This document shows positions 33,927-55,381 of a stretch of DNA of 64,000 nucleotides, one piece after another. Source of the stretch: Salinispora cortesiana. GTDB taxonomy: Bacteria > Actinomycetota > Actinomycetes > Mycobacteriales > Micromonosporaceae. Position 1 is the first letter of the stretch, and each line of letters starts with the position of its first letter. Location: the NCBI RefSeq assembly GCF_000484695.1, contig NZ_AXVR01000003.1, forward strand, positions 1-64,000. Reading direction: 5' to 3'. The notes beneath the pieces were generated by a model that was given only the letters and a program-made list of their open reading frames with translations, ran no database searches and was not told the origin of the DNA. Position numbers and translations under genes: made by a program.

Positions 33927-34000
33927 GGGGCTGTGGCGCAGACCGGTAGCGCACCTCGTTCGCATCGAGGGGGTCAGGGGTTCAAATCCCCTCAGCTCCA
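33927..34000 (+). tRNA. tRNA-Ala (anticodon CGC)
   Basis: A complete cloverleaf. Acceptor GGGGCTG pairs with CAGCTCC and includes the G3-U70 wobble that identifies alanine tRNAs. The anticodon stem CCTCG/CGAGG closes the loop TTCGCAT, giving anticodon CGC (codon GCG). The T arm is AGGGG-TTCAAAT-CCCCT, and the discriminator is A (34,000). CCA is not encoded. Everything downstream changes from core genes to mobile debris and a biosynthetic cluster, so its 3' end is a likely integration site. Confidence 0.95.
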
Positions 34001-34005
34001 CACAA

Positions 34006-38088: not shown

Positions 38089-38883
38089 GTGAACTTTTGG
38101 ATTCTGGGTCGAGTGGCGGCTGGTTCCGCGGAGCGGATGCGCTACTTCCGCAGCGGTCTACAGTGCTCACTGCTGGCAGCACTGCTCTCAGCCGAGGGGC
38201 AGACACTCTCGACCGGGGCTTTGGTGACGGAGCTGTGGGGTGACGCCCCGCCCGACCTGGTGGAAAACGCGCTGCAAGCACACATCAGCAGGCTTCGTCG
38301 GAAGCTGCACGGCATTGCATCAGGTTGTGCCGAGATGCAGCTCGTGGCCCAGGCCGGCGGCTACCGACTGACGGTCGACCGGGCGAGGATCGATGCCTTG
38401 GCATTCACCAAGGCGCTGGCTCAGGCGCGGTTGGTGGCCGAAACCGACCCAACCGAGGTATCCTACCGCCTCCGAGAAGCGTTAGCACTCTGGCAGGGGC
38501 CGGTTTTCGGCGGCGCTGCGGTCGGGCTCGCCGCGCAAGCTGCCGCCGTCCGGCTCGAGGAGTGTCGCCTAGCCGCCCTGCAACTGCTCTTCGACAGTGA
38601 GTTGAGAGTGGGCCTTCACACCGCCATCGTTCCCGAGCTGACCGAGCTGGTGCGGGCCGAATCACCGAACGAGCTGCTCTGCGAGCAGCTCATGGTCGCG
38701 CTGTACCGATGTGGACGGCAGACCGACGCGCTCGGCGTCTATCGCTGGATACGCAACCGGATGTTGGACGAACTGGGCGTCGAGCCGTCACCGGTGCTGC
38801 GCAACCACGAGCGAGCCATTCTGGCTCACCATCCTGATCTGCAGGCGCGGCAAGACCACGTGGCTCTCCGCAACAGCAGGTGA
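38089..38883 (+). CDS. SARP family pathway regulator (wHTH plus BTAD)
   Basis: A 264-aa Streptomyces-antibiotic-regulatory-protein type activator. The OmpR-like winged helix occupies about 3-95 (TLSTGALVTELWGDAPPDLVENALQAHISRLRRKL), and the BTAD domain about 100-245 (REALALWQGPVF, LVRAESPNELLCEQLMVALYRCGRQTDALGVYRWIRN, DELGVEPSP). SARPs bind direct heptamer repeats spaced 11 bp; three such sites are present in this cluster. Valanimycin's VlmI is also a SARP. A TTA leucine codon (38,482-38,484) makes it a candidate for tRNA-Leu(UUA) control. GTG start after GGGGTGA. Confidence 0.92.
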   Translation: MNFWILGRVAAGSAERMRYFRSGLQCSLLAALLSAEGQTLSTGALVTELWGDAPPDLVENALQAHISRLRRKLHGIASGCAEMQLVAQAGGYRLTVDRARIDALAFTKALAQARLVAETDPTEVSYRLREALALWQGPVFGGAAVGLAAQAAAVRLEECRLAALQLLFDSELRVGLHTAIVPELTELVRAESPNELLCEQLMVALYRCGRQTDALGVYRWIRNRMLDELGVEPSPVLRNHERAILAHHPDLQARQDHVALRNSR

Positions 38884-39228: not shown

Positions 39229-40227
39229 TCAGAACGCGTTCGAGGCGCGGAAGATGTGGGCGAAGCCAGCCACGCTCGCGCCGCCGTCAAAGGCGACGTA
39301 CTCCGGCAGTAGGAGGTCAGGAGCCCACTTCTGCTTGTACGCCAGCTGGGACTGGGCCGGGTAGACCGCCTCGCCATGGGCCCACAGCAGGTCCATGAAA
39401 TGACGGAAGCCAGCGTCATAACCAGGCATTTCATGGTCATCATGCAGACCGGAGAACGGGGTAAAGCCGAAGTGCAGCCAGGCTACGTCCTCAGTCCGGA
39501 AGGTCTCGATCGCGGTGACGTTGATCGCCTCCATGATCCCGGGAAGTCTGCTGGGTACCCGCCGGCTAAGATCATGCATCCATCCTGGACGACGGCCGAA
39601 TACCGGAGAGTACGAGATGTAACCGACCGGGTCGCCGTCGATCAACCCGACGAACATGCGGCGGTGCGGTTGCATCCGGTCGCCGTACTGTCCTACCAGG
39701 TACTCCAGCTGTCGGGTGCCCTCGCCCTTGTCGTGTAGCCAGACACGGTCGATCTCGCGCAACCGGGGAAACACCATATCGTCATGGACCTCCACGACTT
39801 CGAGGCCGGCCCGTTGGGCTCGGGAGATCTTGTTACGCAGCTGCATGAACCGGGTGCCGGCCAGTGAGAAGGTAGGGAGGCTACGAGCCCACGACGCGCC
39901 GATCTGGTTGACCGTGAATCCTTCGTCGGCGTACACCATGGCGTCGAAACGCTGCAGCTGAACGCTGACCAGCGTCAGTTGCTGCTCGCGGGCCATCGAT
40001 CGAAACGCGTCCAGTAGTTCCCGGTAGGACTCCGCCGGGGCGAACGGCCCGCCGAACTGCACCAGGAAGCGACCCGTACGCCGATAAACGATCAGCCCCG
40101 GACGGCTCGGCAGATGGAAGTAGGAGTTGCCTTCACTCACCGCGAGGAAGGAGCTCGGGTTGTCGGCTGTCGAATAGTCGCCGATGGCGGCCAGCGCGGG
40201 ATGGTTGGCGGTCAGTGACGTGGTCAC
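39229..40227 (-). CDS. DUF2156/LPG-synthase-C aminoacyl-tRNA-dependent transferase (VlmA-like role)
   Basis: A 332-aa protein with the double-GNAT fold of the C-terminal domain of phosphatidylglycerol lysyltransferases (PF09924/DUF2156). RPGLIVYRRTGRFLVQFGGP, FMQLRNKISRAQRAGLEVVEV, RMFVGLIDGDPVGYISYSP and the acidic YDAGFRHFMDLLW block are in family order. Members take the amino acid from an aminoacyl-tRNA. In valanimycin synthesis VlmA transfers serine from seryl-tRNA to a hydroxylamine, and this protein is best placed for the same reaction. It is divergent from the serine-type tRNA gene 186 bp away, which supports a link. Confidence 0.82.
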   Translation of the reverse strand: MTTSLTANHPALAAIGDYSTADNPSSFLAVSEGNSYFHLPSRPGLIVYRRTGRFLVQFGGPFAPAESYRELLDAFRSMAREQQLTLVSVQLQRFDAMVYADEGFTVNQIGASWARSLPTFSLAGTRFMQLRNKISRAQRAGLEVVEVHDDMVFPRLREIDRVWLHDKGEGTRQLEYLVGQYGDRMQPHRRMFVGLIDGDPVGYISYSPVFGRRPGWMHDLSRRVPSRLPGIMEAINVTAIETFRTEDVAWLHFGFTPFSGLHDDHEMPGYDAGFRHFMDLLWAHGEAVYPAQSQLAYKQKWAPDLLLPEYVAFDGGASVAGFAHIFRASNAF

Positions 40228-40319: not shown

Positions 40320-40348
40320 GTCAGTGGGTTGTCAGGGGATGGTCAGTC
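40320..40348 (+). promoter_or_regulatory. SARP operator 1 (tRNA-kinase-PrpD unit)
   Basis: Three heptamers, GTCAGTG, GTCAGGG and GTCAGTC, begin at 40,320, 40,331 and 40,342, exact 11-bp steps with 4-bp spacers. Eight bases after the last one comes GACAGT (40,357-40,362), which fits a weak -10. This is the known SARP promoter layout. Predicted transcription would start near 40,369, 44 bp before the serine-type tRNA. Confidence 0.8.
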
Positions 40349-40412: not shown

Positions 40413-40499
40413 GGAGAGGTACCCGAAGTGGCCTATTGGGGACCGGGTCTAACCCGGTCGGGCTTTTGCCCACGCAGCGTTCGAATCCTGCCCTCTCCG
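40413..40499 (+). tRNA. Serine-type tRNA with amber anticodon CUA
   Basis: An 87-nt class II tRNA. Acceptor GGAGAGG/CCTCTCC pairs perfectly (413-419 with 492-498), U8 and A9 follow, and the D stem is the 3-bp CCC/GGG typical of serine, with GG in the D loop. The anticodon stem ACCGG/CCGGT closes GTCTAAC: U33, anticodon CTA, A37. The long variable arm is GGGC-TTTT-GCCC. The T loop is canonical (TTCGAAT), but the T stem GCAG-G/C-CTGC has one extra base, C478, as a bulge. Discriminator is G, as in serine tRNAs. SerRS reads the variable arm and discriminator rather than the anticodon, so serine charging is expected. Confidence 0.85.
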
Positions 40500-40529: not shown

Positions 40530-41501
40530 ATGTCGCTGAAAAAAATGCGGGAATCCCCTGGTCTGATCATCGCAAATCCGACCGCTGGTACCGTGGGACC
40601 CGATCTTGTGGCAGATCTCGTCGCACAGTGCCGGCGGTTTCTGCCGGATGTGGAGGTGCACTGGACGACGGGCCGTGGGGACGCCACCAAGGCAGCCCGC
40701 GAAGCGGCTGAACGGACAGCGACGCGTCTGGGAGTCGTCTTCGCCGTCGGCGGCGACGGTACCGTGCGTGAGGTTGTCGAAGGGTTCACCGCTGCGAGGC
40801 CACAGCATCGCGACGGGCCGGCCCTCATGGTCGTCCCGGCGGGGACTGGAAACTCGAACTACCTCGCGCACTGGAGCGATTGCGCCTGGCCGGTCGCGGT
40901 GACGGCAGCCCTGTCCGGGCAGCGGTCCGAGTCAGTCGGAGCAGAGGTTCGCATGCTCGACCTCTGTCGACTGACCCAAACCCGGGAGATCGTCCTCCTG
41001 GGAGCGTGCTCCGGCCTGATCGCCGAAGCGTTGGTCTATGCCCGCGACGTCCCGCTGTCGGGCCGGCCCCGGTATCGGGAAGCCTTGGCGCGTGCCGCTG
41101 AGGCGAACCGACCCTACCCGGGCCGGGTCGAGGTCGACGGGGTGCTGATCCATGAGGGCCCGACCGTGCTCGCCAACGTCGGTGGTGGCCGCTACCGCGG
41201 AGGCCAGTACAAGATCCTCCCACGGTCAATCCTCGACGACGGTCTCCTCGACGTTTGCGTGATCGGCGCCGAGACACGCGCCGCTGATGTGCCGGAACTG
41301 ACCCGTCACGGAGCGCACCTCGGGCGGTCCGGCGTCGTCTATGCCAGCGGCCGGCGGATCACCATTAGTCGTCAGGACGGTGAGCCGCTCTGGTTCGAAC
41401 ACGACGGAGAGCTCCTGCCGCGTGAACATGCAGCGGTCACGCTGGAGGTGCTGCCCGGCCGGCTGCCGGCCGTCTGCCGGTCCGGGCGGGCGCTTGGTTA
41501 A
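40530..41501 (+). CDS. Diacylglycerol/lipid kinase family protein (VlmJ-like role)
   Basis: A 323-aa protein of the DAGK catalytic family. The nucleotide motif GGDGTVREV is at 74-82, PAGTGNSNYLA follows, and the C-terminal beta-sandwich contains HEGPTVLANVGGGRYRGGQ and DDGLLDVCVI. In valanimycin biosynthesis the DAGK homologue VlmJ phosphorylates the serine-derived hydroxyl before elimination. Here the gene starts 30 bp after the tRNA and is followed by a PrpD-type gene, the same pair as vlmJ-vlmK. Lipid phosphorylation is the alternative. Confidence 0.88.
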   Translation: MSLKKMRESPGLIIANPTAGTVGPDLVADLVAQCRRFLPDVEVHWTTGRGDATKAAREAAERTATRLGVVFAVGGDGTVREVVEGFTAARPQHRDGPALMVVPAGTGNSNYLAHWSDCAWPVAVTAALSGQRSESVGAEVRMLDLCRLTQTREIVLLGACSGLIAEALVYARDVPLSGRPRYREALARAAEANRPYPGRVEVDGVLIHEGPTVLANVGGGRYRGGQYKILPRSILDDGLLDVCVIGAETRAADVPELTRHGAHLGRSGVVYASGRRITISRQDGEPLWFEHDGELLPREHAAVTLEVLPGRLPAVCRSGRALG

Positions 41502-41524: not shown

Positions 41525-43030
41525 ATGACGTCCGACCTGCCAGAACTCTCGTGCCGTCCCCTGCTGCCGCAGTTGGCCGCGTGGGCGGCCGAACTACGGG
41601 TCACGGACGTGCCCGAGCGAGTGCGTGCCCTGGCCACGAGCCAGATCATCGCCCAGATCGCGGCGATGCGCGCCGGCCTGAGGCATTCGAAGAGTGCCGT
41701 GCTGCTACGGGCATACGGGCCACTGCGGCAGGCTGACCCGCGCCGCGCCTCGGTCGTACTGGGCGCGCTGGGTTCCTGGCTGAATCTGGACGACACCGCG
41801 TACGCCGGCCACCTGGCGCCTTCGACCGTCGCCGTGCCTTTGGCCTGGGCGCTCGCCGGACACAGCGACGGGCGGACACTCTTGACCGCAGTCGTGGCCG
41901 CCAACGAGTGCGCTGCCCGAATTACGGCTGCCGCCACGCTCGGCCCTCTGCGTGGGCAGAGCGCGCTGCACACCCATCTGGCCGGCGCGGTGGCCGGCCG
42001 CCTGGCGAGCGAAGGGGCGCCGACCCGGCGTTGGGTGGACGCGATGAGTTTGGCGTTCGCCGCTCCCCCCTGGCCCACCATGCACGCCTTCCTGGGAGGT
42101 GACGCCAAGCTGATCCACGTCGTCGCTCCGGTCCGCGCCGCGATGGACGCGTGCGACGCCGCCACGGCCGGCCTGACCGGGCCACCCGACGTGCTCGAAC
42201 ACCCTCGGGGGTTCTTGGCGCGGTTCGCGGCGGTGCCCCTGCCCGAGCTCGTGACCGAGGATTTAGGACACCGCTGGCACACCGACACGCTGTCCTTCAA
42301 GCTCCGTCCGGGCGGCCCTGGCATCGACGCGGCCGTGGACTGCGCGGTGGAGCTGCACCAGATGGTGCGGGGAGCACGAGTGACCGGCGTCGAGATCGCG
42401 GCCTCCGCTTACACACTCTTTGCCGGCCGTCAGTCAGAGAGTTATCAGGCCGGTCCGGATACCCCGCTCAGTGCCCTACTGCTCTGCACCGGCTACCCGG
42501 TGGCGACCGCTCTGCTGACCGGAGACCTGCGGGTGGAGGACTTCGATCAGCCGGAGTTGCGTGACCAGGCCCGCTGGACGTTGGCCCGAAGCGTGCAGCT
42601 GGTGCACGACCCGGAGATGACCCGGCAGCTCTTCGCCTCGGTGGCGCCGTTCGGCGCTGCGTTGCGCCGCGCTGGTGAACGAGCGCGGCCCTGGCTGTCG
42701 CAGTTCGTCGGGGAGGAGTTGGCGGAACTGGCCTTGGCGACCGCTGCCGAGAAGGCCGGCGCCGACGATTCGTTCCGTGAAGCGACCAAGGCGACGCCGG
42801 CGCGGGTGACGGTACGGCTGGCTGACGGCCGTTCGATCACGCGAGCGCGAACGGTCCCACTGGGAGCGGCCGGACCGGATACCCGCCGTCGACACGGTGA
42901 ACTGGCCCGGCGCAAGTTCCTCGCCCAAGGGGGCAGCGAGGCAGTCGCCAACGCCCTCAGCGGAGATCTCACGAGTTGCTCCGCCAGCGAACTGTCCAGG
43001 TTGCTGCACGCAGCCCTGAGTGACGAATGA
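41525..43030 (+). CDS. MmgE/PrpD family protein (VlmK-like dehydratase role)
   Basis: A 501-aa MmgE/PrpD protein: helical N-terminal domain (SWLNLDDTAYAGHLAPSTVAVP; AANECAARITAAA; HTHLAGAVAGRL), a mid-domain with the WHTDTLSFKLRPGGPGIDAAVD block, and a C-terminal small domain (VTVRLADGRS). In valanimycin synthesis VlmK, also of this family, eliminates phosphate made by VlmJ to give the dehydroalanine-type alkene. It lies 23 bp after the kinase gene. One TTA codon at 42,263. The product may therefore carry an unsaturated azoxy head group (inference). Confidence 0.86.
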   Translation: MTSDLPELSCRPLLPQLAAWAAELRVTDVPERVRALATSQIIAQIAAMRAGLRHSKSAVLLRAYGPLRQADPRRASVVLGALGSWLNLDDTAYAGHLAPSTVAVPLAWALAGHSDGRTLLTAVVAANECAARITAAATLGPLRGQSALHTHLAGAVAGRLASEGAPTRRWVDAMSLAFAAPPWPTMHAFLGGDAKLIHVVAPVRAAMDACDAATAGLTGPPDVLEHPRGFLARFAAVPLPELVTEDLGHRWHTDTLSFKLRPGGPGIDAAVDCAVELHQMVRGARVTGVEIAASAYTLFAGRQSESYQAGPDTPLSALLLCTGYPVATALLTGDLRVEDFDQPELRDQARWTLARSVQLVHDPEMTRQLFASVAPFGAALRRAGERARPWLSQFVGEELAELALATAAEKAGADDSFREATKATPARVTVRLADGRSITRARTVPLGAAGPDTRRRHGELARRKFLAQGGSEAVANALSGDLTSCSASELSRLLHAALSDE

Positions 43031-43206: not shown

Positions 43207-43235
43207 GTCAGACGGGTGTCAGGTCCGTGTCAGGG
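43207..43235 (+). promoter_or_regulatory. SARP operator 2 (11-gene biosynthetic operon)
   Basis: GTCAGAC, GTCAGGT and GTCAGGG begin at 43,207, 43,218 and 43,229, again exact 11-bp steps. Eight bases later GAGACT (43,244-43,249) is the -10 candidate. The aldehyde dehydrogenase gene starts at 43,310. Same core GTCAG as the other two sites. Confidence 0.82.
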
Positions 43236-43309: not shown

Positions 43310-44974
43310 GTGTCTATTGCGTCTGGAGTCGGTGTGGCGCCGTCCGTTGATTCGCCACTCACTGGTCGACAGCAGTCTGTCGTCGAGCAAGTGCGTAGCT
43401 ACGAGTCATATATTGGCGGTCGGGACGTTGCGGGGGAGGGGTGGGTGTACACACTCACCGCTCGTTCGCTGCTCGAGGATGTTTTTACAAGCGTCAATGT
43501 CAAAAGGACACTGGAGCGGAATCCGGAGTCGCCGGCCGCCCTTCATCCGTACGTCGTGGGGCGGTGCGGGGTGGCGACCGTGGCAGACATCGACGCTGCG
43601 GTGGACGCGGCCGTATCCGCGGCACCGGAGTGGGCGGCCACACCGCTGTCCACCCGGATGCGGCTAGGCCCGATGTTTCGTGCCAAGCTCCAGGAGCGGC
43701 GGGAGGAATTCCTGTCGATGTTGATGGCCGAGGCGCATCCGCGGATGCTCGCGGAGTGGGAGCTGTCCTGCTTGGAACAGGTCTACAGCGACGAAAGCTG
43801 CGACTGGTACCGCCAGCAGATGTCAACGGAGTTTGACCACGGGCCCCGCCGGCTGATCGTGCGGCGCTGCCCCGACGGGGTGGTCTGCATCAACCCTCCG
43901 CAGAACGCACCGGCCCCCAGTGCGGCACTGGCGGTCCTCGTCCTGATGGCAGGGAACACCGTCGTGGTGCGCGCCCCCCGCAGCATAGCTCTGAGCACCA
44001 TGTACGTCCTTCGAGAGCTGGTCGCGCCGCTCCTTCGGGAGCTCGGCGCCCCGCCCGGCGCGCTCAATGTCGTCTGCGGTAAACCGCAGCAAACGCTGGA
44101 GCGGTGGCTGGGGCACCCGGGTGTCAACGACATCCTGTATTTCGGTGGGAGCGAGGAGGGGCTGCGCTTCGAGCGGGAATGCGTGGCTCGGGGCAAAAAG
44201 CCCATTCTCGAGCTCGCCGGCAACGACGGGCTCGTGGTCTGGCGAGACGCCGATCTCCGGCTCGCCGCCGAGGCGATCGCCGAGTGCTTCTACGGGTCCG
44301 GCCAGATCTGCATGGTTCCCAACTATGTGCTCGCCCACCCGGCGATCGCCGACGAGTTGCTTGCTCTCGTCCGCGCGGAGGTAGGTAACGTCCGGCCGGG
44401 CTACCCGGAGGACTACGGGGTCTTGCTGTCGCCGGTGCGCCGCAGCGAGAAGTTCTTCCGGCTGCTCAACCAGGCGTTGCAGGAGGGCGCCGAACTGGTC
44501 TGCGGCGGCCGGCGGATTGAGCTAGACGGCACACCCTCCGAAACCGGCGTGTTCCTCGAACCCACCGTGGTGCGGGTCAACGGGCTGCGTGAGGCCCGAT
44601 GCCTGGACGTCGTGCAGCACGAGACGTTCTTTCCGCTTATCCCGTTCGTCGTCGCGGAGCCCGCCAGCGACGAGCTCCTGCTGGAGCGGACCATCGGCTT
44701 TCTCAACGACAACATCTACGGGCTACGCAACTCACTGTGGACCACATCGGCGGACGTGACTGACCGGTTCGTCACCCGGGTGCACAACGGCGGGCTGCTC
44801 AAGGTCAATGACTCTCACATCGGCTTCCTGCCCTACCTGCCCAGTCACGGGGGGACCGGACTCACCGGCGGTGCGTTCGGCGAGGCGAACTACCCCATCC
44901 TTAAGACCTCCCACCTTCAGGGAGTCAGCATCTCTCGTGGTGTCCGTCCGCGCACCGCGGTGTTCGGCGATTAA
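43310..44974 (+). CDS. Aldehyde dehydrogenase superfamily protein (possible acyl reductase)
   Basis: A 554-aa ALDH-fold enzyme, longer than the usual 480-500 by an N-terminal extension of about 80 residues. The general base Glu301 is in ELAGND, the nucleophile Cys334 in GSGQICM, and LNDNIYGLRNSLWT and the C-terminal dimer strand follow. It could oxidise an aldehyde, or work in reverse as an acyl-CoA/ACP reductase giving the aldehyde that the aminotransferase downstream would aminate. The second fits the pathway better but is inference. First gene of the SARP-2 operon; GTG start after GGGAG. Confidence 0.8.
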   Translation: MSIASGVGVAPSVDSPLTGRQQSVVEQVRSYESYIGGRDVAGEGWVYTLTARSLLEDVFTSVNVKRTLERNPESPAALHPYVVGRCGVATVADIDAAVDAAVSAAPEWAATPLSTRMRLGPMFRAKLQERREEFLSMLMAEAHPRMLAEWELSCLEQVYSDESCDWYRQQMSTEFDHGPRRLIVRRCPDGVVCINPPQNAPAPSAALAVLVLMAGNTVVVRAPRSIALSTMYVLRELVAPLLRELGAPPGALNVVCGKPQQTLERWLGHPGVNDILYFGGSEEGLRFERECVARGKKPILELAGNDGLVVWRDADLRLAAEAIAECFYGSGQICMVPNYVLAHPAIADELLALVRAEVGNVRPGYPEDYGVLLSPVRRSEKFFRLLNQALQEGAELVCGGRRIELDGTPSETGVFLEPTVVRVNGLREARCLDVVQHETFFPLIPFVVAEPASDELLLERTIGFLNDNIYGLRNSLWTTSADVTDRFVTRVHNGGLLKVNDSHIGFLPYLPSHGGTGLTGGAFGEANYPILKTSHLQGVSISRGVRPRTAVFGD

Positions 44975-45043: not shown

Positions 45044-46186
45044 ATGCGCTCCCTTGACGTCGCCCGCGCAACCTGCGAGACACATCATCCCGGCCTTTGC
45101 GCGTCGCTGGCCGCCACACCGCTGGCCGAGCACGAGTCCCCGCAGAGCAGCTCAATCAAGACGTTCCGCGCACACGGCGGCGCCGGGCTGCTTGTGCCGG
45201 CGGAGGCCGGCGGCGTCGGTGCGAATGCTCTGGACGCGGTACGGGTCGCCCGGGCCGTCTCCTCGTACGCGCCGTCCCTCGGCGCGGCAGTAACCATGCA
45301 CCACTTCACCGCGGCCATGCTGTTCACCCTGGCCGAAACCGCCGGGCGGCTGACCCCGCAGCAGGTCGCATTGCTGCATCGGGTGGCTCCGGAGGGGCTG
45401 CTGATGGCTTCGGGCTGGGCCGAGGGCAAGCCGAACGCGAACATACTCACGCCGAGTGTGACGGCACGTCCGGCACCGGACGGCGGCTATCTGATCAGTG
45501 GCAGCAAGAAACCGTGCAGCCTGTCAGCCTCGATGGATCTGCTGACCGCCAGTGTCGCCCTTCCTGAGGCCGACGGTGGATCGACGTTGGCGGTTCTGCT
45601 TATTCCCGCCGACACCCCTGGCATCTCGGTGAGCCCCTTCTGGGGAACGTCCGTGCTGCCCGCCGCCGAGAGCGACGAGGTCCGGCTTGATGACGTTCAC
45701 GTGCCGGACGAATTGGTTATTCGGACCGTGCCGGATGACCCGCAGCGACTCGACGACCTGCAGAGCTCGGGCTTCGTGTGGTTCGAGATGATGATCACCT
45801 CAGTCTATCTCGGCGTGGTGAGTGCGTTGGTGGAGCAGGTCCTGGCCAGCGGTAAGGGCGCAGTGATGGAGCGGGCGGCGGTTGTCATCGGCCTGGAAGC
45901 GGCGATTGCCGGAGTGGAGGGTGTGGCCCGAGCGGTACTCGACGGGATCAATGGCGACGAGGCGGTCGCCGCCGTGCTGGTCGCCCGCTATGCCGCGCAG
46001 GAGGCGATCGGGCGGGCGGTGGACCTTGCGGTCGAGATGCTCGGTGGCCTGGCCTTTATCCGCTCCAGCGACATCGCCTACTTGGCATCCGCCGCCCGCC
46101 CGCTCGTCTTCCACCCGCCGTCGCGTACGAGTGCGGCCGAAGCGTTGCTCGACTACTTCGCCGGTCGACCGCTGGTGCTGTCCTGA
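45044..46186 (+). CDS. Acyl-CoA dehydrogenase-fold flavoprotein, probable amine N-hydroxylase (VlmH-like)
   Basis: A 380-aa ACAD-superfamily protein that diverges from true dehydrogenases. The N-terminal helices are short, the middle domain reads GWAEGKPNANILTPSVTA and GGYLISGSKKPCSLS, and the C-terminus lacks the EGTSEIQ block with the catalytic Glu. Two-component monooxygenases such as isobutylamine N-hydroxylase (VlmH) and DszC-like enzymes share this form and use FMNH2 from a reductase, and such a reductase is encoded four genes downstream. Predicted to turn the chain-derived amine into a hydroxylamine. Confidence 0.75.
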   Translation: MRSLDVARATCETHHPGLCASLAATPLAEHESPQSSSIKTFRAHGGAGLLVPAEAGGVGANALDAVRVARAVSSYAPSLGAAVTMHHFTAAMLFTLAETAGRLTPQQVALLHRVAPEGLLMASGWAEGKPNANILTPSVTARPAPDGGYLISGSKKPCSLSASMDLLTASVALPEADGGSTLAVLLIPADTPGISVSPFWGTSVLPAAESDEVRLDDVHVPDELVIRTVPDDPQRLDDLQSSGFVWFEMMITSVYLGVVSALVEQVLASGKGAVMERAAVVIGLEAAIAGVEGVARAVLDGINGDEAVAAVLVARYAAQEAIGRAVDLAVEMLGGLAFIRSSDIAYLASAARPLVFHPPSRTSAAEALLDYFAGRPLVLS

Positions 46187-46211
46187 CCACGAGTACGAGA
46201 GGGACACAGCA

Positions 46212-47519
46212 ATGACGATCACGACCAAGGTGCCGGCCCACAGCGCACCCGGCGAATCCAGCGCGGAGGAGCGCACCCTGCGGCTCTACCGGTCGCACCT
46301 GAGCAAGGGCCGAGCGACCCTGGCCGAACTGTTCGGCAGCCACATGGAGGTGGCATCGTCCGGCGCGTGGCTGACGACCAGCGACGGTGAGCGGTTCCTG
46401 AACTGCGGTGGGTACGGGGTGTTCATTATGGGGGCCCGGCACCCCATCGTGATGGAGGCCGTGCTCGACCAACTCCACCGGCATCCGATCGCAACGCGGA
46501 TCCTGCTGGAGCCGACAGTTGCCACCGCGGCCGAGGCGATCGTCTCGGTGACACCGGAGGGCATGGACCGCGTGCACTTCGCGGTGTCGGGTGCCGAAGC
46601 GGTGGAGACCGGGCTCAAGTTGGCCCGCGCACACGGCAAGCGGCACATCGTTGCTGCTGACCGGGGCTATCACGGCAAGTCGCTCGGTGCCCTGTCCGCC
46701 AGTGGCAAGGAGGTCTACCGGAGGCCGTTCGAGCCGCTGCTGCCCCAGGTGTCTCGCGTGCCGTACGGCGATGTCGAGGCGCTGGAGCGGGAGTTGGCTC
46801 TCCGGCCGGGCGAAGCGTGCTTCATTGTTGAGCCGGTGCAGGGCGAGGGCGGAGTCGTCATTCCGCCCCCGGATTACCTGCGTCGTGCCGCGGGGCTGTG
46901 CCGAGACTACGACGCTTTTCTGATCTTCGATGAAGTGCAGACCGGCATGGGTCGGCTCGGGCATTGGTGGGGCGCCGATCTCGCCGGAGTGGAGCCGGAT
47001 GTGCTGCTGGTCGGCAAGGCGCTCGGTGGGGGTGTCCTGCCCGTCTCCGCTGCCGTGGCCAGCCGCCGGGTGTTCGCACCCTTTGACAAGGATCCCTACC
47101 TGCACACCGGGACCTTCTCCGGCGCGCCGGTGCTGATGGCGGCGGTTCAGGGAGCGGTGCAGGCGATCAAGGAGGAGCGCCTGGTCACTCGAGCCATGGA
47201 CTTAGGGCGCAGGCTCCTGCCCGAGATCGAACGGGTCGTTCTGCGGAACTGCGCCGACCTGGTTGTCGAGGTCCGGGGCGAGGGCCTGCTCATCGGGATC
47301 GAACTCATCGAGGGCGGCATCGCCGGTGAACTGCTCATCGAGTTGTTCAACCACGGCATTGTGGCCAACCACTCCATGAACGGCAGCGCCGTCGTCCGCT
47401 TCACCCCGCCGGCGATCCTGACCGACTCCGACGTGAACTTCCTCCTCGAATCGATCGACGGTGCCACCCGCGACCTCGTGGACAAGCGCGCCCGCATGCC
47501 GGAAGGCAGTCTGACATGA
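46212..47519 (+). CDS. Class III PLP-dependent aminotransferase
   Basis: A 435-aa aminotransferase. GVFIMGARHPIVMEAVLDQL, VHFAVSGAEAVETGLKLARA and GYHGKSLGAL are the N-terminal family blocks; IFDEVQTGMGRLG holds the PLP-contacting Asp240, and VLLVGKALGGGVLP the Schiff-base Lys269. It would aminate an aldehyde from the preceding ALDH-like enzyme, giving the amine needed for N-hydroxylation; in valanimycin this amine comes from valine decarboxylation instead. ATG 46212 follows GAGAGGG; the stop overlaps the next ATG. One TTA codon at 47,202. Confidence 0.9.
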   Translation: MTITTKVPAHSAPGESSAEERTLRLYRSHLSKGRATLAELFGSHMEVASSGAWLTTSDGERFLNCGGYGVFIMGARHPIVMEAVLDQLHRHPIATRILLEPTVATAAEAIVSVTPEGMDRVHFAVSGAEAVETGLKLARAHGKRHIVAADRGYHGKSLGALSASGKEVYRRPFEPLLPQVSRVPYGDVEALERELALRPGEACFIVEPVQGEGGVVIPPPDYLRRAAGLCRDYDAFLIFDEVQTGMGRLGHWWGADLAGVEPDVLLVGKALGGGVLPVSAAVASRRVFAPFDKDPYLHTGTFSGAPVLMAAVQGAVQAIKEERLVTRAMDLGRRLLPEIERVVLRNCADLVVEVRGEGLLIGIELIEGGIAGELLIELFNHGIVANHSMNGSAVVRFTPPAILTDSDVNFLLESIDGATRDLVDKRARMPEGSLT

Positions 47520-48013
47520 GAACCGTAAAGCTCGACGCCGGGATACCGGCGACCGCACCACACACGGTCTTCGACCAGATCCTGCGCTTCGAGCGCTACC
47601 CCGAGCTGGCGCCGCATGTCCAGTCGGCGACGGTCCATCAGACCGTACCCGAGCGGACCGGCCGATCAAGTTGGGAGCTGCACTTCCGCAGCGGGTTGCT
47701 GCGGTGGGAGGAGGAAGAACGGTTTCTGCGTGACGAGCTGCTCATTGAGTTCGCACAAACTGACGGGGATTTCGACAGGTTCAGCGGGAGCTGGCAGTTC
47801 AGCAGTCACCTGGACGGCACCGAACTGCAGTTCCGGGCCGAGTTCGACTTCGGCATTCCGAGCCTGGAGGGAATTTTGGACCCGATTGCCGAGCGGGTGA
47901 TCCGCGAGACCGTCGCCTGGGTCGTGGTCGGTCTGTTCGACGGGGTTCGTATCTCGGACGGTGCCCTCAACGACATCGCCGCAGCGACATCCACTCGTGC
48001 TGACTGGAGGTAG
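47516..48013 (+). CDS. SRPBCC (polyketide cyclase/dehydrase-like) protein
   Basis: A 165-aa START-like protein: ATAPHTVFDQILRFERYPELAPHVQS, SSWELHFRSGLLRWEEEE, FSGSWQFSSHLDGTELQF and a long C-terminal helix. The fold binds hydrophobic ligands in a cavity; in this operon it may hold the lipophilic intermediate or help the membrane enzyme that follows. No catalytic residue can be named. ATG overlaps the aminotransferase stop. It ends TAG TGA, two stops in a row. Confidence 0.8.
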   Translation: MRTVKLDAGIPATAPHTVFDQILRFERYPELAPHVQSATVHQTVPERTGRSSWELHFRSGLLRWEEEERFLRDELLIEFAQTDGDFDRFSGSWQFSSHLDGTELQFRAEFDFGIPSLEGILDPIAERVIRETVAWVVVGLFDGVRISDGALNDIAAATSTRADWR

Positions 48014-48017
48014 TGAC

Positions 48018-48515
48018 ATGGATCAGAAGAATCCCTTCGAGACGCCCACCACTTTCCGGCTGCACCGCGCTGAATACGGCGTCGGTTTAGCGGTCAGCAG
48101 CGTACTGCTCGTCATGCACTGGGACGAGGTGCGCTGGCTGCCTGCCATCGCCCTGTTCCTCTACATCGACCTGATCGGCTACATCCCTGGTGCCATTGCC
48201 TTTCACCGGAGCAAGACCAAGCAGATATCCAAGGTCTACTACGTCCTGTACAACATCATGCATAGCATGATCACACAGGCCGCGGTGGTCGGTCTGTGGA
48301 TGTACTTCATCGGACCGGAGTGGGCACTTCTGGTGATCCCCTTCCATCTCTTCGGAGATCGCGCGTTGTTCGGCAACTTCCTCAAGCCATTCGGCCTGCC
48401 GTTCGAGCCGGTCCCGCACCCCATGTACGGCAAAATGATCGAGTCGATCGTGGGGCAAGACACCGGAAGTCGGGCACCCGAAATGAACCCGGTGCCCGCC
48501 GGGTCGAGGCAGTGA
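48018..48515 (+). CDS. Small polytopic His-rich membrane protein, hydrazine synthase candidate (VlmO-like role)
   Basis: A 165-aa membrane protein with about four hydrophobic helices (about 20-34, 40-62, 76-98, 100-112). Histidines 16, 34, 63, 82, 110 and 134 and acidic residues 36, 37, 51 and 114 lie near helix ends, a pattern compatible with a metal site (IAFHRSKTK; IMHS; PFHLFGDR). In the valanimycin pathway a membrane-bound metalloenzyme makes the N-N bond. This is the only membrane protein among the azoxy-type genes and directly precedes the reductase and diiron genes. The role is inferred from context. GGAGG precedes the ATG; TTA codon at 48,087. Confidence 0.65.
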   Translation: MDQKNPFETPTTFRLHRAEYGVGLAVSSVLLVMHWDEVRWLPAIALFLYIDLIGYIPGAIAFHRSKTKQISKVYYVLYNIMHSMITQAAVVGLWMYFIGPEWALLVIPFHLFGDRALFGNFLKPFGLPFEPVPHPMYGKMIESIVGQDTGSRAPEMNPVPAGSRQ

Positions 48516-49183
48516 ATACCGTCGGGTTGGCTGCTCGCCGGTCGGCCGCGTCGGAGGATTCCGGCACGGGTGATCTTGCAGAAGTAGGTCGGTCGTCGGG
48601 AGGGGAACGGACGGCCACGCACCGCAGTGCTGTGCGCCGGATAGCGTCCGCTGTCGCCGTGTTGACCACCAGGACCAACCGGGGACCGCACGGTGTGACG
48701 GTCAGCTCGCTGAGCGCCCTCTCCCGAGAACCTCTGTTGGTCGGGATCTGCCTTCAGCGCCAGTCAGCGTCACTCGCCCTACTCAAGGAGAGCCGGACGT
48801 TTGCGGTCAGCGTGCTGACCGCGTCGCAGGCGGAGCCGGCCCGACGTTTCGCCGATCCCCAACGCCCCCGCGGCCGGGCGCAGTTCGACCTGGTCGATTG
48901 GGAGCCTGATCCCTACAGCGGTGCTCCGCTGATCGCCGACGCGCTGTCCTGGCTGAGCTGCCGGCTCGTGACCACCGCAGCAGCCGGGGACCATGAGCTG
49001 CTGCTGGCTGAGGTGGTCGAGGGTGTGGCCCGGGACGGCCATCCGCTGTTGAACTTTGGCGGCGCCATGGCTGCGGTGACAACCCTGGAGGCAGCGGCGC
49101 CTCCTGCGCATCGCGCTACCCCTGACTTGTCGACGGTAGCGGTTGACACACCACTCACGCGTTGTGAAGGAGAGTCCGGATGA
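48512..49183 (+). CDS. Flavin reductase-like (DIM6/NTAB) protein (VlmR-like role)
   Basis: A 223-aa protein with a variable N-terminus and a flavin-reductase split barrel: SAVRRIASAVAVLTTRT, GVTVSSLSALSREPLLVGICLQ and FAVSVLTASQAEPARRFA, then HELLLAEVVEGVA. It would supply reduced flavin to the ACAD-fold monooxygenase in the same operon, as VlmR does for VlmH. GTG start overlaps the previous stop (GTGA), so translation is coupled. Confidence 0.88.
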   Translation: MNTVGLAARRSAASEDSGTGDLAEVGRSSGGERTATHRSAVRRIASAVAVLTTRTNRGPHGVTVSSLSALSREPLLVGICLQRQSASLALLKESRTFAVSVLTASQAEPARRFADPQRPRGRAQFDLVDWEPDPYSGAPLIADALSWLSCRLVTTAAAGDHELLLAEVVEGVARDGHPLLNFGGAMAAVTTLEAAAPPAHRATPDLSTVAVDTPLTRCEGESG

Positions 49184-50157
49184 CCCGCACCGTCCCGCCG
49201 GAGGCGGACTGGAACGATGCTCCCACACTGCTCGACGGGGCCATGAATCTCGATCTCACCGAGGACCAGTGCGATCTCGCCTACTGGTTGAGCGCCGTCG
49301 CCCAGGGAACGTTGAAGGACCGTGCCGAGAAGGGCTACGCCCCAGCAGCTGAGACCCCCGCGCACATGCGAGAGCCAGGGCCCCTACGTGACGCGCTGAT
49401 CATGGAACTCGGCTACCGATCCGTCGCGGAGGAGAAGGCGACGCGCATCCTGGCGCACTACGTCGCGCAGGCGCCGGGCTTGCCGGAGTTGGAGTTCTAC
49501 ACGACCCAACTGGTGGACGAGGCACGCCACTCGATGGTGTTCCGCAAGCACCTGACCGATCTCGGCATGGCGACGGACGGCCTCGCCCGGGCGGTGGCGG
49601 AGATGTCGGCCGACTACACCAAGGAGATTCTTGAACCGGTCGAGGAATTCGCCGTGCGTACCGTCCGGGACGAAGGCGACTTCATCGGTGGGGTGGCGAT
49701 TTTCACGATCGTCATCGAGGGTGTGCTGGCGCCCGCGGCTGAGTTGAGTGAGCGAAAGTGGCATCGACTGGACCCAGCCGCCAGTGAGATCGCACGCGGC
49801 GCATCCATCGACGAGATACGACACCTCACCGTCGGTAGCTCAATCCTGCGCCGTCACCTCGTCGCGCACCCCGACTACCGGCCTCGGCTGCTCGACATCC
49901 TGCGCCGGGGGCGCCAGCTTTGGGACGACCTCCCGGAAGAGGCGTACGTGATGCGCCGGGAACACCTGTTCCAGGAGGGGATGGGGCAGCACCGTGACCT
50001 GCTCGACGACTACGAGGTCTGGCCGGGCCGGCGACTTCTCGACACGACCCCGGCCGAGCGTTACGCCACCGCCGAGCGGTGGACGGACGAGATGGCGGTG
50101 GTGCGCCTGAACTACATGGGCGTGCCGGAAGCGCTGCCGGTGCTGGGGCTCGCGTGA
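49180..50157 (+). CDS. Ferritin-like diiron oxygenase, azoxy synthase candidate (VlmB-like role)
   Basis: A 325-aa four-helix-bundle protein with a carboxylate-bridged diiron pattern: Glu84/85 in SVAEEKAT, Glu114 and His117 in VDEARH, Glu180 in IVIEG, and Glu212 and His215 in SIDEIRH. This resembles AurF-type N-oxygenases. In valanimycin synthesis a non-haem diiron enzyme oxidises the hydrazine intermediate to the azoxy group, and the same role is proposed here. Start overlaps the reductase stop (ATGA). Confidence 0.85.
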   Translation: MTRTVPPEADWNDAPTLLDGAMNLDLTEDQCDLAYWLSAVAQGTLKDRAEKGYAPAAETPAHMREPGPLRDALIMELGYRSVAEEKATRILAHYVAQAPGLPELEFYTTQLVDEARHSMVFRKHLTDLGMATDGLARAVAEMSADYTKEILEPVEEFAVRTVRDEGDFIGGVAIFTIVIEGVLAPAAELSERKWHRLDPAASEIARGASIDEIRHLTVGSSILRRHLVAHPDYRPRLLDILRRGRQLWDDLPEEAYVMRREHLFQEGMGQHRDLLDDYEVWPGRRLLDTTPAERYATAERWTDEMAVVRLNYMGVPEALPVLGLA

Positions 50158-54197: not shown

Positions 54198-54226
54198 GTC
54201 AGGCGCTGGTCAGGCACCAATCAGCG
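54198..54226 (+). promoter_or_regulatory. SARP operator 3 (desaturase-ACP-PKS-ligase operon)
   Basis: GTCAGGC, GTCAGGC and ATCAGCG start at 54,198, 54,209 and 54,220, exact 11-bp steps. Eight bases later CACGCT (54,235-54,240) is the -10 candidate. The desaturase ATG is at 54,275. The third heptamer deviates in its first base. Confidence 0.78.
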
Positions 54227-54274: not shown

Positions 54275-55381
54275 ATGCAGGCGAGACAATCGCTGTCCGA
54301 AGGCCCGGTGACGCCGCGCAGTGGCCTCGTCGGCATCGACCCGGCCCGAGCATCGGCCGGAGACGTGGGTCACCACTTCGCCGAGCTGGCCAAAGAGGTC
54401 CGGGCGGCGGGCCTGTTGGACCTGGCACCCAGGCGCTACTACTTGCGGTTGGCCCTTAACGCCGGCTTGTTCGCTGCCGGACTGGCAGCCTTCTTTCTCG
54501 TCGGCGACAGCTGGTGGCAACTGGCAGTAGCCGCCTGGTTGGGCTTGAGTTGCGCGCAGAGCGCGTTCATGTGGCACGACGCAGGGCACAAGGCCATGTT
54601 CCGGGGAACATGGGCGACGGCGATGGGGCTCATCCACGCTAACCTGTTAAACGGGGTCAGCTATGGGTGGTGGGTCAACCACCATAACCGTCACCACAGT
54701 TTTCCCAACAACATCGACCTCGATCCGGACATCGGTCGGCGGACGGCGATCTTCACCATGTCGCAGTACGCAAGGCGCACCCGGTGGCAACGCTTCGTCG
54801 TCCGCCACCAGCATGTGCTCTTCTTCGTGCTGCTCGTGCTCGAAGGTTACAAGATGCGTCGGACCTCGCTGATTGCACTGTTTCGCAGCCAGCTTCGTCG
54901 CCCGGTCGTGGAGGGGCTGCTCATCCTCGCCAACATGACGATCTACCTCGGCGCCGTCTTCCTGGTCCTGAGCCCAGTAAGAGCCATCGCCTTCCTGATA
55001 GTCCAACATATGGTGCTGGGTGTCTATTTTGGGCTCATCTTCGCACCTAACCACAAGGGTATGGAGGTCCGCGACGGAGCCGAGTCCCTAGACTGGCTGG
55101 AGCGTCAGGTTCTCACCTCGCGCAACATCCGACCCTCGCCTCTGGTCGACTTTCTGTACGGCGGGCTTAACTACCAGGTGGAACACCATCTGTTCCCGAC
55201 TATGCCGCGCATGAATCTCCCACACTGCCGACCTATCGTGCAGGAATTTTGCACCCGCCGAGGGATCCCGTACCGGGAGGTCGGATTGATCGAGTCCTAC
55301 CAGGAGGTTGCCTCCTTCCTGCACGAGGTCAGCGAACCCGCGCGCCGGGGCATGACGACCGTCACCACGCCGACCGTCTGA
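54275..55381 (+). CDS. Membrane fatty-acid desaturase
   Basis: A 368-aa integral membrane diiron desaturase. The three histidine boxes are HDAGH (101-105), HNRHH (137-141) and QVEHH near residue 295, with hydrophobic segments between. It would insert a double bond in an acyl chain on lipid, CoA or ACP; the ACP encoded next suggests a carrier-bound substrate. AAGGAGG precedes the ATG. TTA codon at 54,647. Confidence 0.9.
   Translation: MQARQSLSEGPVTPRSGLVGIDPARASAGDVGHHFAELAKEVRAAGLLDLAPRRYYLRLALNAGLFAAGLAAFFLVGDSWWQLAVAAWLGLSCAQSAFMWHDAGHKAMFRGTWATAMGLIHANLLNGVSYGWWVNHHNRHHSFPNNIDLDPDIGRRTAIFTMSQYARRTRWQRFVVRHQHVLFFVLLVLEGYKMRRTSLIALFRSQLRRPVVEGLLILANMTIYLGAVFLVLSPVRAIAFLIVQHMVLGVYFGLIFAPNHKGMEVRDGAESLDWLERQVLTSRNIRPSPLVDFLYGGLNYQVEHHLFPTMPRMNLPHCRPIVQEFCTRRGIPYREVGLIESYQEVASFLHEVSEPARRGMTTVTTPTV

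What the first reader, a model, noticed from the sequence alone, without database searches (positions are those of the whole stretch)
40413..40499. Cluster-embedded serine tRNA with amber anticodon and bulged T-stem: a dedicated seryl donor?
A full class II tRNA with serine features (3-bp D stem, long variable arm, G discriminator) carries anticodon CUA, one base away from the serine CGA anticodon. It lies between a divergent DUF2156 aminoacyl-tRNA-dependent transferase (VlmA role) and the VlmJ/VlmK-like genes. Valanimycin synthesis needs seryl-tRNA. SerRS ignores the anticodon, so this tRNA should be charged with Ser but could read no sense codon. The extra C at 40,478 bulges the T stem, the EF-Tu contact, which could keep it from the ribosome, as with tRNAs used in cell-wall synthesis. 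I know of no azoxy pathway described with its own tRNA gene.
Basis: partly seen in the sequence, partly recalled or inferred. Interest (0 to 1): 0.95.

Follow-up and report, generated by a model that had tools for sequence, protein, structure and literature searches.

The report
Serine tRNA dedicated to antibiotic making
Beside a gene for an enzyme that takes serine from transfer RNA to build azoxy antibiotics sits a serine-type transfer RNA whose code-reading arm has degenerated, one of a large unrecognised family in actinomycetes that probably carries serine to this enzyme instead of to the ribosome.

Summary
The RNA at 40413-40499 is real. It belongs to a large conserved family ('tRL') that I found in no paper I could search. 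Acceptor stem, T stem and G73 are nearly invariant and the variable arm is long (serine-type), but the anticodon arm is a covarying hairpin of any sequence, mostly 8-9 bp with a 4-5 nt loop. Only 3 of 112 distinct copies can form an ordinary 7-nt anticodon loop, none with a serine anticodon. The CUA is therefore coincidental, and the extra T-stem base is in three genomes only. tRL genes track vlmA, the aminoacyl-tRNA-dependent transferase of azoxy pathways. Of the 80 best-matching vlmA genomes, 77 carry one; all 51 tRL genomes in a 392-genome Streptomyces sample have a vlmA homologue, although 31 of 80 vlmA genomes there, mostly other VlmA clades, lack tRL. A SARP-type triple GTCAG repeat lies 36-142 nt upstream in 60 of 63 loci, and before most copies examined on contigs other than vlmA's. 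A51-U63 matches one change linked to weak EF-Tu binding in staphylococcal cell-wall tRNAs. Best reading: a SARP-induced, non-decoding tRNA-Ser, charged by SerRS and used by VlmA. Charging, use by VlmA and EF-Tu evasion are inferred.

The parts
40413..40499 (+). tRL: non-decoding tRNA-Ser-like RNA gene (acceptor 40413-40419/40492-40498, D arm about 40422-40440, anticodon-arm hairpin 40441-40459, variable arm 40460-40471, T arm 40474-40491, G73 at 40499)
40449..40451 (+). CUA triplet, 3-nt loop of an 8-bp hairpin in the minimum-energy fold; not conserved
   Evidence: L037 lacks it
40478..40478 (+). extra C in the T stem; also an extra base in L036 (T, two copies) and L037 (C) only
40320..40346 (+). 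perfect triple GTCAG direct repeat with 11-nt period, SARP-type box 67 nt upstream of the tRL
38089..38883 (+). SARP-family regulator (BTAD + Trans_reg_C), candidate activator of the tRL
39229..40227 (-). VlmA-type aminoacyl-tRNA-dependent transferase (LPG_synthase_C, PF09924), divergent from the tRL
40530..41501 (+). VlmJ-like kinase (DAGK_cat/YegS_C), directly downstream of the tRL
41525..43030 (+). VlmK-like MmgE/PrpD protein
43207..43233 (+). second perfect SARP-type box, upstream of the aldehyde dehydrogenase gene
43310..44974 (+). aldehyde dehydrogenase family protein
45044..46186 (+). acyl-CoA-dehydrogenase-like flavin N-hydroxylase (VlmH role)
   Evidence: the role is inferred from the cluster
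46182..47519 (+). class III aminotransferase
47961..48515 (+). small protein without a Pfam match, conserved in azoxy loci (VlmO position; role inferred)
48296..49183 (+). putative flavin reductase (VlmR role inferred from position and conservation; not in the Pfam scan; true start uncertain)
49180..50157 (+). AurF/R2-like diiron protein (VlmB role); the Pfam AurF match is below its curated cut-off
54198..54224 (+). third SARP-type box (1 mismatch), upstream of the ORF at 54275 that I read as a desaturase (name recalled, no family search)

Best explanation
The gene encodes a tRNA-Ser derivative dedicated to azoxy-antibiotic biosynthesis. The cluster's SARP regulator switches it on. It is charged with serine by SerRS (the housekeeping enzyme in this genome; apparently a cluster-encoded SerRS in many relatives), which does not read the anticodon. 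Because its anticodon arm is no decoding loop and its T stem carries a weak EF-Tu pair, the seryl-tRNA stays out of translation. VlmA reads the conserved acceptor/T-arm and moves serine onto the alkylhydroxylamine. Shown by sequence: the family, its structure and covariation, loss of a decoding loop, genome-level linkage to vlmA and the conserved SARP-type box. Inferred: regulation by the SARP, charging, EF-Tu evasion and use by VlmA.
For: Structure: 26 pairs on 42 sequences, 96.0% of cells paired; acceptor (7/7) and D stem (3/3) never vary, while 6 of 7 anticodon-arm pairs show changes on both sides; 0 of 500 shuffles reach the observed covariation. Non-decoding: 3 of 112 distinct copies can form a 5-bp/7-nt loop with U33 (CUA, UCG, GUG), against 4 of 4 ordinary tRNA-Ser genes of this genome. 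Serine identity: long variable arm, G73, G1-C72 and G2-C71, and anticodon-independent serylation (PMC9976931, passages). Linkage: of the best 80 of 215 vlmA matches, 59 have it within about 10 kb, 17 of the other 21 genomes have it elsewhere, and one more has a copy cut by a contig end. Class sample of 394: 5 tRL genomes, all among 9 with VlmA at 345 bits or more, a cut chosen afterwards (Fisher p = 1.6e-9). Streptomyces sample of 392: 51 tRL genomes, 49 with VlmA at E <= 1e-60, the other 2 with a 36-38% VlmA homologue about 2.3 kb away. Promoter: SARP-type box upstream in 60 of 63 loci, 64 sites against 1.0 expected; within 1 mismatch before 16 of 22 copies on contigs other than vlmA's. EF-Tu: A51-U63 in 112 of 112, G51-C63 in the genome's four tRNA-Ser (read). 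Chemistry: 48 of 64 local tRL loci have SerRS or VlmJ in the stretch held; of 22 vlmA loci inspected from Streptomyces genomes without tRL, 1 has VlmJ/VlmK and none SerRS.
Against: No expression, charging or transfer data. Published VlmA chemistry names seryl-tRNA without such an RNA (PMC4052509 and PMC11705231, passages). Of the 80 Streptomyces genomes with VlmA at E <= 1e-60, 31 have no tRL, as have 4 of the 9 in the class sample; most belong to other VlmA clades, but L190 (G588) has VlmJ and VlmK and no tRL. Three of the 80 vlmA genomes show no copy (G107, G114, G117; in G107 vlmA lies 195 bases from a contig end). Sixteen of 64 local tRL loci have neither SerRS nor VlmJ in the stretch held. 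G18G19 is kept and 49-65 is G-C, unlike the staphylococcal non-proteinogenic tRNA-Gly; only A51-U63 agrees. One of four ordinary tRNA-Ser also folds with a 3-nt anticodon loop. Genomes are related and the samples overlap, so p-values overstate independence. My motif scans were built around acceptor and T arm, so part of their invariance is selected for; the covariance searches, which tolerate change there, left a clear gap (60.1 to 80.9 bits, 58.2 to 75.2), but scored only 10 and 150 candidates per genome. Odds lowered from 0.82 in my draft because of the tRNA-Ser fold control, the 49-65 pair and L190.
Confidence: 0.78

Rival explanations
1. An amber suppressor tRNA-Ser that decodes UAG in the cluster or in stressed cells.
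For: CUA lies in a formal 7-nt loop in the window copy; SerRS ignores the anticodon.
Against: CUA is in none of the other 111 distinct copies as a canonical loop. The most similar copy, L037, has a different hairpin.
Confidence: 0.02
2. A decaying tRNA pseudogene or an integration scar.
For: The anticodon arm is degenerate, and default ARAGORN and Rfam miss the window copy. One partly deleted copy was seen beside an intact one in L064.
Against: Acceptor, D and T arms are almost invariant across several actinomycete genera, the hairpins covary, tandem copies are kept (21 of 64 local loci have 2-4) and the promoter box is conserved.
Confidence: 0.02
3. A regulatory RNA: a tRNA-mimic leader or sponge that senses seryl-tRNA or controls the vlmJ or vlmA mRNA, without donating serine.
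For: It lies between the SARP-type box and vlmJ in the window, and within 400 bp upstream of vlmA on the opposite strand in 52 of 64 loci.
Against: Some genomes have copies on contigs other than vlmA's, most with their own SARP-type box; positions vary (beside SerRS, VlmH or VlmJ); tandem arrays suggest dosage; full serine identity elements are kept.
Confidence: 0.08
4. It is charged and used by VlmA, but only as an extra supply; ordinary tRNA-Ser serves equally well and the degenerate anticodon merely spares translation. (Overlaps with the best explanation, so the odds do not add to one.)
For: VlmA clades without tRL exist, one of the inspected loci without tRL has VlmJ/VlmK (L190), and published work describes transfer from seryl-tRNA without this RNA (PMC4052509, passage).
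Against: Close linkage in the main clade: 39 of 42 Streptomyces genomes with VlmA >= 485 bits have tRL (counted by hand).
Confidence: 0.2

Closest known systems
Non-proteinogenic tRNA-Gly isoacceptors of Staphylococcus aureus (cell-wall bridge synthesis)
   Same: Proposed to keep an aminoacyl-tRNA out of translation for a ribosome-independent transferase; the T-stem change G51-C63 to A51-U63 is the same (PMC4052509, passage).
   Different: They are tRNA-Gly isoacceptors with A49-U65 and replaced G18G19 (same passage). tRL is serine-type, has G49-C65 in nearly all copies and keeps G18G19, has lost a decoding loop, is tied to an antibiotic pathway and carries a SARP-type promoter box.
Canonical actinobacterial tRNA-Ser
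   Same: Class II cloverleaf, long variable arm, G73, G1-C72 and G2-C71.
   Different: Different, nearly invariant acceptor/T-arm sequence; no serine anticodon in a 7-nt loop; 76-84% identity among relatives, where the ordinary tRNA-Ser(UGA) is 93-100% identical in all 37 genomes of the genus searched.
tRNA-Sec (RF01852)
   Same: Serylated by SerRS and kept from EF-Tu (PMC9976931, passage); best permissive Rfam match.
   Different: 25.7 bits against a gathering score of 47; no UCA anticodon; 7-bp acceptor stem.
Valanimycin pathway (VlmA, VlmL, VlmJ, VlmK, VlmI)
   Same: Homologues of VlmA/H/J/K/B and a SARP in the window; SerRS (VlmL role) in many relatives; three-heptamer VlmI sites upstream of vlmJ and vlmA-vlmH are reported (PMC10972967, passage), where tRL genes sit in relatives.
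   Different: No tRNA gene is mentioned for it in the passages I could read; the Streptomyces viridifaciens cluster sequence and the original papers were not available here.

Membership tests
Canonical decoding tRNA-Ser | Class II cloverleaf with long variable arm and G73 | tested here: met
Canonical decoding tRNA-Ser | 7-nt anticodon loop with U33 and a serine anticodon | tested here: not met
   window: CUA only; 0 of 112 copies have a serine anticodon in a canonical loop
Canonical decoding tRNA-Ser | Detected by standard tRNA models | tested here: not met
   window missed; in 20 related loci ARAGORN finds nothing in 6 and gives arbitrary or unknown anticodons in 14
Amber suppressor tRNA | CUA conserved in a 7-nt loop | tested here: not met
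   1 of 112
tRNA-Sec | RF01852 gathering score, UCA anticodon | tested here: not met
   25.7 of 47 bits
Non-proteinogenic tRNA (S. aureus tRNA-Gly type) | Weak EF-Tu T-stem pair A51-U63 | tested here: met
Non-proteinogenic tRNA (S. aureus tRNA-Gly type) | A49-U65 | tested here: not met
   G49-C65 in 110 of 112, G49-U65 in 2
Non-proteinogenic tRNA (S. aureus tRNA-Gly type) | Replacement of G18G19 | tested here: not met
   G18 and G19 invariant in the 42 sequences of A3
Non-proteinogenic tRNA (S. aureus tRNA-Gly type) | Charged, and used by a ribosome-independent transferase | not testable with these tools
   needs biochemistry
Aliphatic azoxy (valanimycin-type) gene cluster | VlmA/VlmH pair with VlmB/O/R homologues (PMC9379638, section 8 read) | tested here: met
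   the VlmO and VlmR roles rest on position and conservation
SARP regulon | Three heptamer-type direct repeats with 11-nt period upstream of the target | tested here: met
   protein binding not tested

The most novel reading that the evidence does not exclude
Actinomycetes have evolved a pathway-specific amino-acid carrier RNA: a tRNA-Ser freed from the genetic code, in many genomes with a matching cluster SerRS, and used by a dedicated transferase. In some genomes it is amplified into a dispersed regulon (eleven copies in one), most copies examined with a SARP-type box, so that switching on one antibiotic also switches on its own private aminoacyl-tRNA pool.
Probability: 0.7. Interest if true: 0.97.

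Novelty: new variant of a known kind. Interest (0 to 1): 0.94.

Why it matters
How aminoacyl-tRNA is diverted from translation into antibiotic pathways is stated as unknown for valanimycin (PMC4052509, passage: mechanism of diversion and VlmA/VlmL identity elements 'still unknown'; the identity elements are again called unknown in PMC9976931, passage). A dedicated, non-decoding tRNA under the pathway's own regulator would answer this for one large pathway family and give an immediate test by deletion. It would also supply a natural carrier that should not misread codons, a genome-mining marker for serine-using azoxy pathways, and a warning that a standard tRNA finder misses these genes or gives them nonsense anticodons.

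Tried and rejected
Amber suppression, pseudogene decay and tRNA-Sec were considered and rejected (see rivals). A script scan for the family in the 80 vlmA loci first returned 0 of 80; I did not find the fault and replaced it with a rewritten scan and then a covariance model. The SerRS column is invalid because the query was an antisense frame; it was redone. Whole-genome matches of 50-60 bits might have been weak members; 12 of 12 that I checked with ARAGORN are ordinary tRNA-Ser; the rest were not checked. A weak Rfam match to Streptomyces RNA Scr5676 (21.3 bits of 56) was not followed. ARAGORN with a relaxed threshold gave 53 calls in a 3-kb control stretch and was useless. The VlmA tree labelled L052 as lacking the RNA and left out L078; later showed a copy cut by a contig end in the L052 genome, so its 5 changes are an upper figure. 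I considered a valanimycin-like label for the L099 group, but the Pfam scan did not settle it. Structure prediction of VlmA was not run, because sequence profiles already match solved MprF-type transferases.

Full report
WHAT IS THERE. The window is contig 3 of a 5.18-Mb draft genome whose genus includes Micromonospora mirobrigensis (the G035 contig has the same length as the contig of L045; inference). At 40413-40499 (+) a class II cloverleaf is present as described, between a divergent VlmA-type transferase gene (39229-40227, PF09924 at 199 bits) and vlmJ/vlmK-like genes, in an azoxy cluster with VlmH-, aminotransferase- and AurF/VlmB-like genes and a SARP regulator. The genome has ordinary tRNA-Ser genes for CGA, GCU, UGA and GGA and one SerRS over the family cut-off, outside the window.

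A FAMILY, NOT A CURIOSITY. blastn over 101 genomes, own included, found full-length homologues in five others; each lies within 10 kb of a vlmA homologue. A scan of genome contigs with six VlmA proteins gave 215 relatives, of which the best 80 were kept. In 85 non-duplicate sources (window, four relatives, 80 loci) 64 hold the RNA locally, 95 copies in all: 43 loci with one, 12 with two, 8 with three, 1 with four. One of the 64, L083, is counted from the covariance search at a contig edge. A covariance model from 42 sequences gives family members in the same loci 76 bits or more and other tRNAs 33 bits or less; a fragment cut by a contig edge scored 37 and a partly deleted copy 21.

ANATOMY. 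Acceptor and D-stem pairs never vary in 42 sequences and four of five T-stem pairs never vary, while six of seven anticodon-arm pairs show double changes; no shuffle out of 500 reaches the observed covariation. In 112 distinct copies from the loci fetched up, the acceptor is GGAGAGG with CCTCTCC (104) or CTTCTCC (8), and G73 is constant. The scans were built around these arms, so some of this constancy is selected for. The anticodon arm is a hairpin: in the 107 copies with two clear middle hairpins its loop is 3 nt in 12, 4 in 62, 5 in 25, 6 in 4, 8 in 3 and 10 in 1, and its stem is 8-9 bp in 66. Only 3 of 112 can form a 5-bp stem with a 7-nt loop and U33; the triplets are CUA (window), UCG and GUG. 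Four of four ordinary tRNA-Ser genes of this genome pass the same test, although by minimum energy one of them (GGA) also closes to a 3-nt loop; the argument therefore rests on the family's variation and not on the fold of the window copy. Run over 20 related loci, ARAGORN finds nothing in 6 and elsewhere calls the copies Glu, Leu, Ile, Val, Cys, Arg, Asp or unknown. CCA is encoded after G73 in 18 copies; the window copy has CAA.

CUA is not conserved: the most similar copy by eye, Salinispora mooreana L037, has a different hairpin. The extra T-stem base occurs in the window, L037 and the two copies of L036 only.

LINKAGE WITH VLMA. Of the 80 vlmA loci, 59 have the RNA within the stretch held. 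Of the other 21 genomes, 17 have copies of 75 bits or more elsewhere, and an eighteenth, G102, has a copy cut by a contig end, identified by eye. So 77 of 80 carry it; G107, G114 and G117 show none, and in G107 vlmA lies near a contig end. In a class-wide sample of 394 genomes, 5 have the RNA and 9 have VlmA at 345 bits or more; the 5 are among the 9 (Fisher p = 1.6e-9). The 345-bit cut was chosen after seeing the list; in all 35 genomes match the VlmA profile at E <= 1e-10. Twelve of twelve lower-scoring RNA matches that I checked there are ordinary tRNA-Ser. In 392 Streptomyces genomes, 51 have the RNA and 80 have VlmA at E <= 1e-60; 49 of the 51 overlap, and 31 of the 80 have no RNA. The two exceptions have a 36-38% VlmA homologue and VlmJ beside the RNA. 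Of the 42 genomes with VlmA at 485 bits or more, 39 have the RNA (counted by hand). These samples overlap with each other and with the 80 loci and the genomes are related, so the p-value is only a guide.

On a tree of 106 VlmA sequences, presence in the genome changes 5 times against a mean of 21.1 and a minimum of 15 in 1000 shuffles. By contrast 48 of 64 loci with the RNA have SerRS (27) or VlmJ (22). That these SerRS are cluster enzymes and not the housekeeping ones is inferred from their place and their 36-42% identity to the SerRS of this genome. This fits serine chemistry: published work assigns VlmL to seryl-tRNA formation and VlmJ/VlmK to dehydration of the serine part (PMC9379638 and PMC4052509, passages), and suggests alanyl-tRNA for azodyrecin (PMC9379638, passage).

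POSITION AND PROMOTER. The nearest copy is at most 400 bp upstream of vlmA on the opposite strand in 52 of 64 loci. Elsewhere it lies near vlmJ, vlmH or a SerRS gene. A box of three GTCAG units with an 11-nt period, at most one mismatch in 15, lies 36-142 nt upstream on the same strand in 60 of 63 loci (L083 left out); 64 sites were seen against 1.0 expected from background density. In the window it is perfect at 40320-40346, and two further boxes precede the aldehyde dehydrogenase gene and the ORF at 54275; 0 of 100 shuffles gave three boxes. The form agrees with SARP sites: heptameric direct repeats, classical 11-bp units, and three-heptamer VlmI sites upstream of vlmJ and vlmA-vlmH (PMC10972967, passages). 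Some genomes carry copies away from vlmA (11 of 90 bits or more in G101), where tblastn with 17 cluster proteins finds no vlmA, vlmH or vlmJ. This argues for a trans-acting RNA made under the pathway regulator.

MECHANISM. Serine identity rests on the variable arm, acceptor pairs and G73 and does not depend on the anticodon (PMC9976931, passages), so charging by SerRS is expected. An arm without an anticodon loop should not decode. The T stem has A51-U63 in 112 of 112 copies; the four ordinary tRNA-Ser have G51-C63 (read from the alignment). G51-C63 to A51-U63 is one of the changes linked to weak EF-Tu binding in staphylococcal non-proteinogenic tRNA-Gly (PMC4052509, passage). Two others named there, A49-U65 and the loss of G18G19, are not found here. 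VlmA belongs with MprF-type transferases of solved structure. I therefore infer that VlmA takes serine from this RNA. None of charging, transfer or EF-Tu affinity has been shown.

NOVELTY. Searches of open-access full text returned no paper that, in listings or passages, describes a tRNA gene dedicated to an azoxy pathway. A January 2026 review of aminoacyl-tRNA-dependent enzymes in natural product biosynthesis does not hold the terms 'tRNA gene', 'anticodon' or 'dedicated' (PMC12945691, term search). Subscription papers, supplements and the original valanimycin papers could not be read, so an unseen report is possible. Two reviews call the diversion of Ser-tRNA or the identity elements unknown (PMC4052509 passage; PMC9976931 passage). 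Tandem copies, degenerate anticodon arms, linkage to one enzyme and a pathway-type promoter set this family apart from known dedicated tRNAs, though the idea of a tRNA reserved for a non-ribosomal enzyme is known.

Noticed in passing
window 43207-43233 and 54198-54224: Two more SARP-type triple repeats before the aldehyde dehydrogenase gene and the ORF at 54275; they outline a possible regulon of the cluster.
   Followed up: partly
G101 (L168-L177), G104 (L178-L181), G105 (L182-L184), G113 (L186), G116 (L187): Copies of the RNA on contigs other than vlmA's, most with their own SARP-type box. How they spread is unknown.
   Followed up: partly
L226, L228, L232, L193: In some genomes the RNA lies within about 1 kb of a SerRS gene instead of next to vlmA.
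   Followed up: partly
L188 and L189: Two genomes have a distant VlmA (36-38%) with the RNA and a triple CTCAG repeat, with 11-nt period, in place of GTCAG.
   Followed up: no
L234-L250: A group of 17 vlmA loci without the RNA, SerRS or VlmJ/K, and also without an AurF/VlmB homologue at E <= 1e-8; possibly another amino acid or chemistry.
   Followed up: no
L069 2704-2894, L092 9560-9746: Assembly gaps (runs of N) inside tandem copies, so copy numbers in drafts can be underestimates.
   Followed up: yes
window 33927-34001: An ordinary tRNA-Ala (CGC) about 6.4 kb upstream, the only tRNA ARAGORN reports in the window.
   Followed up: no
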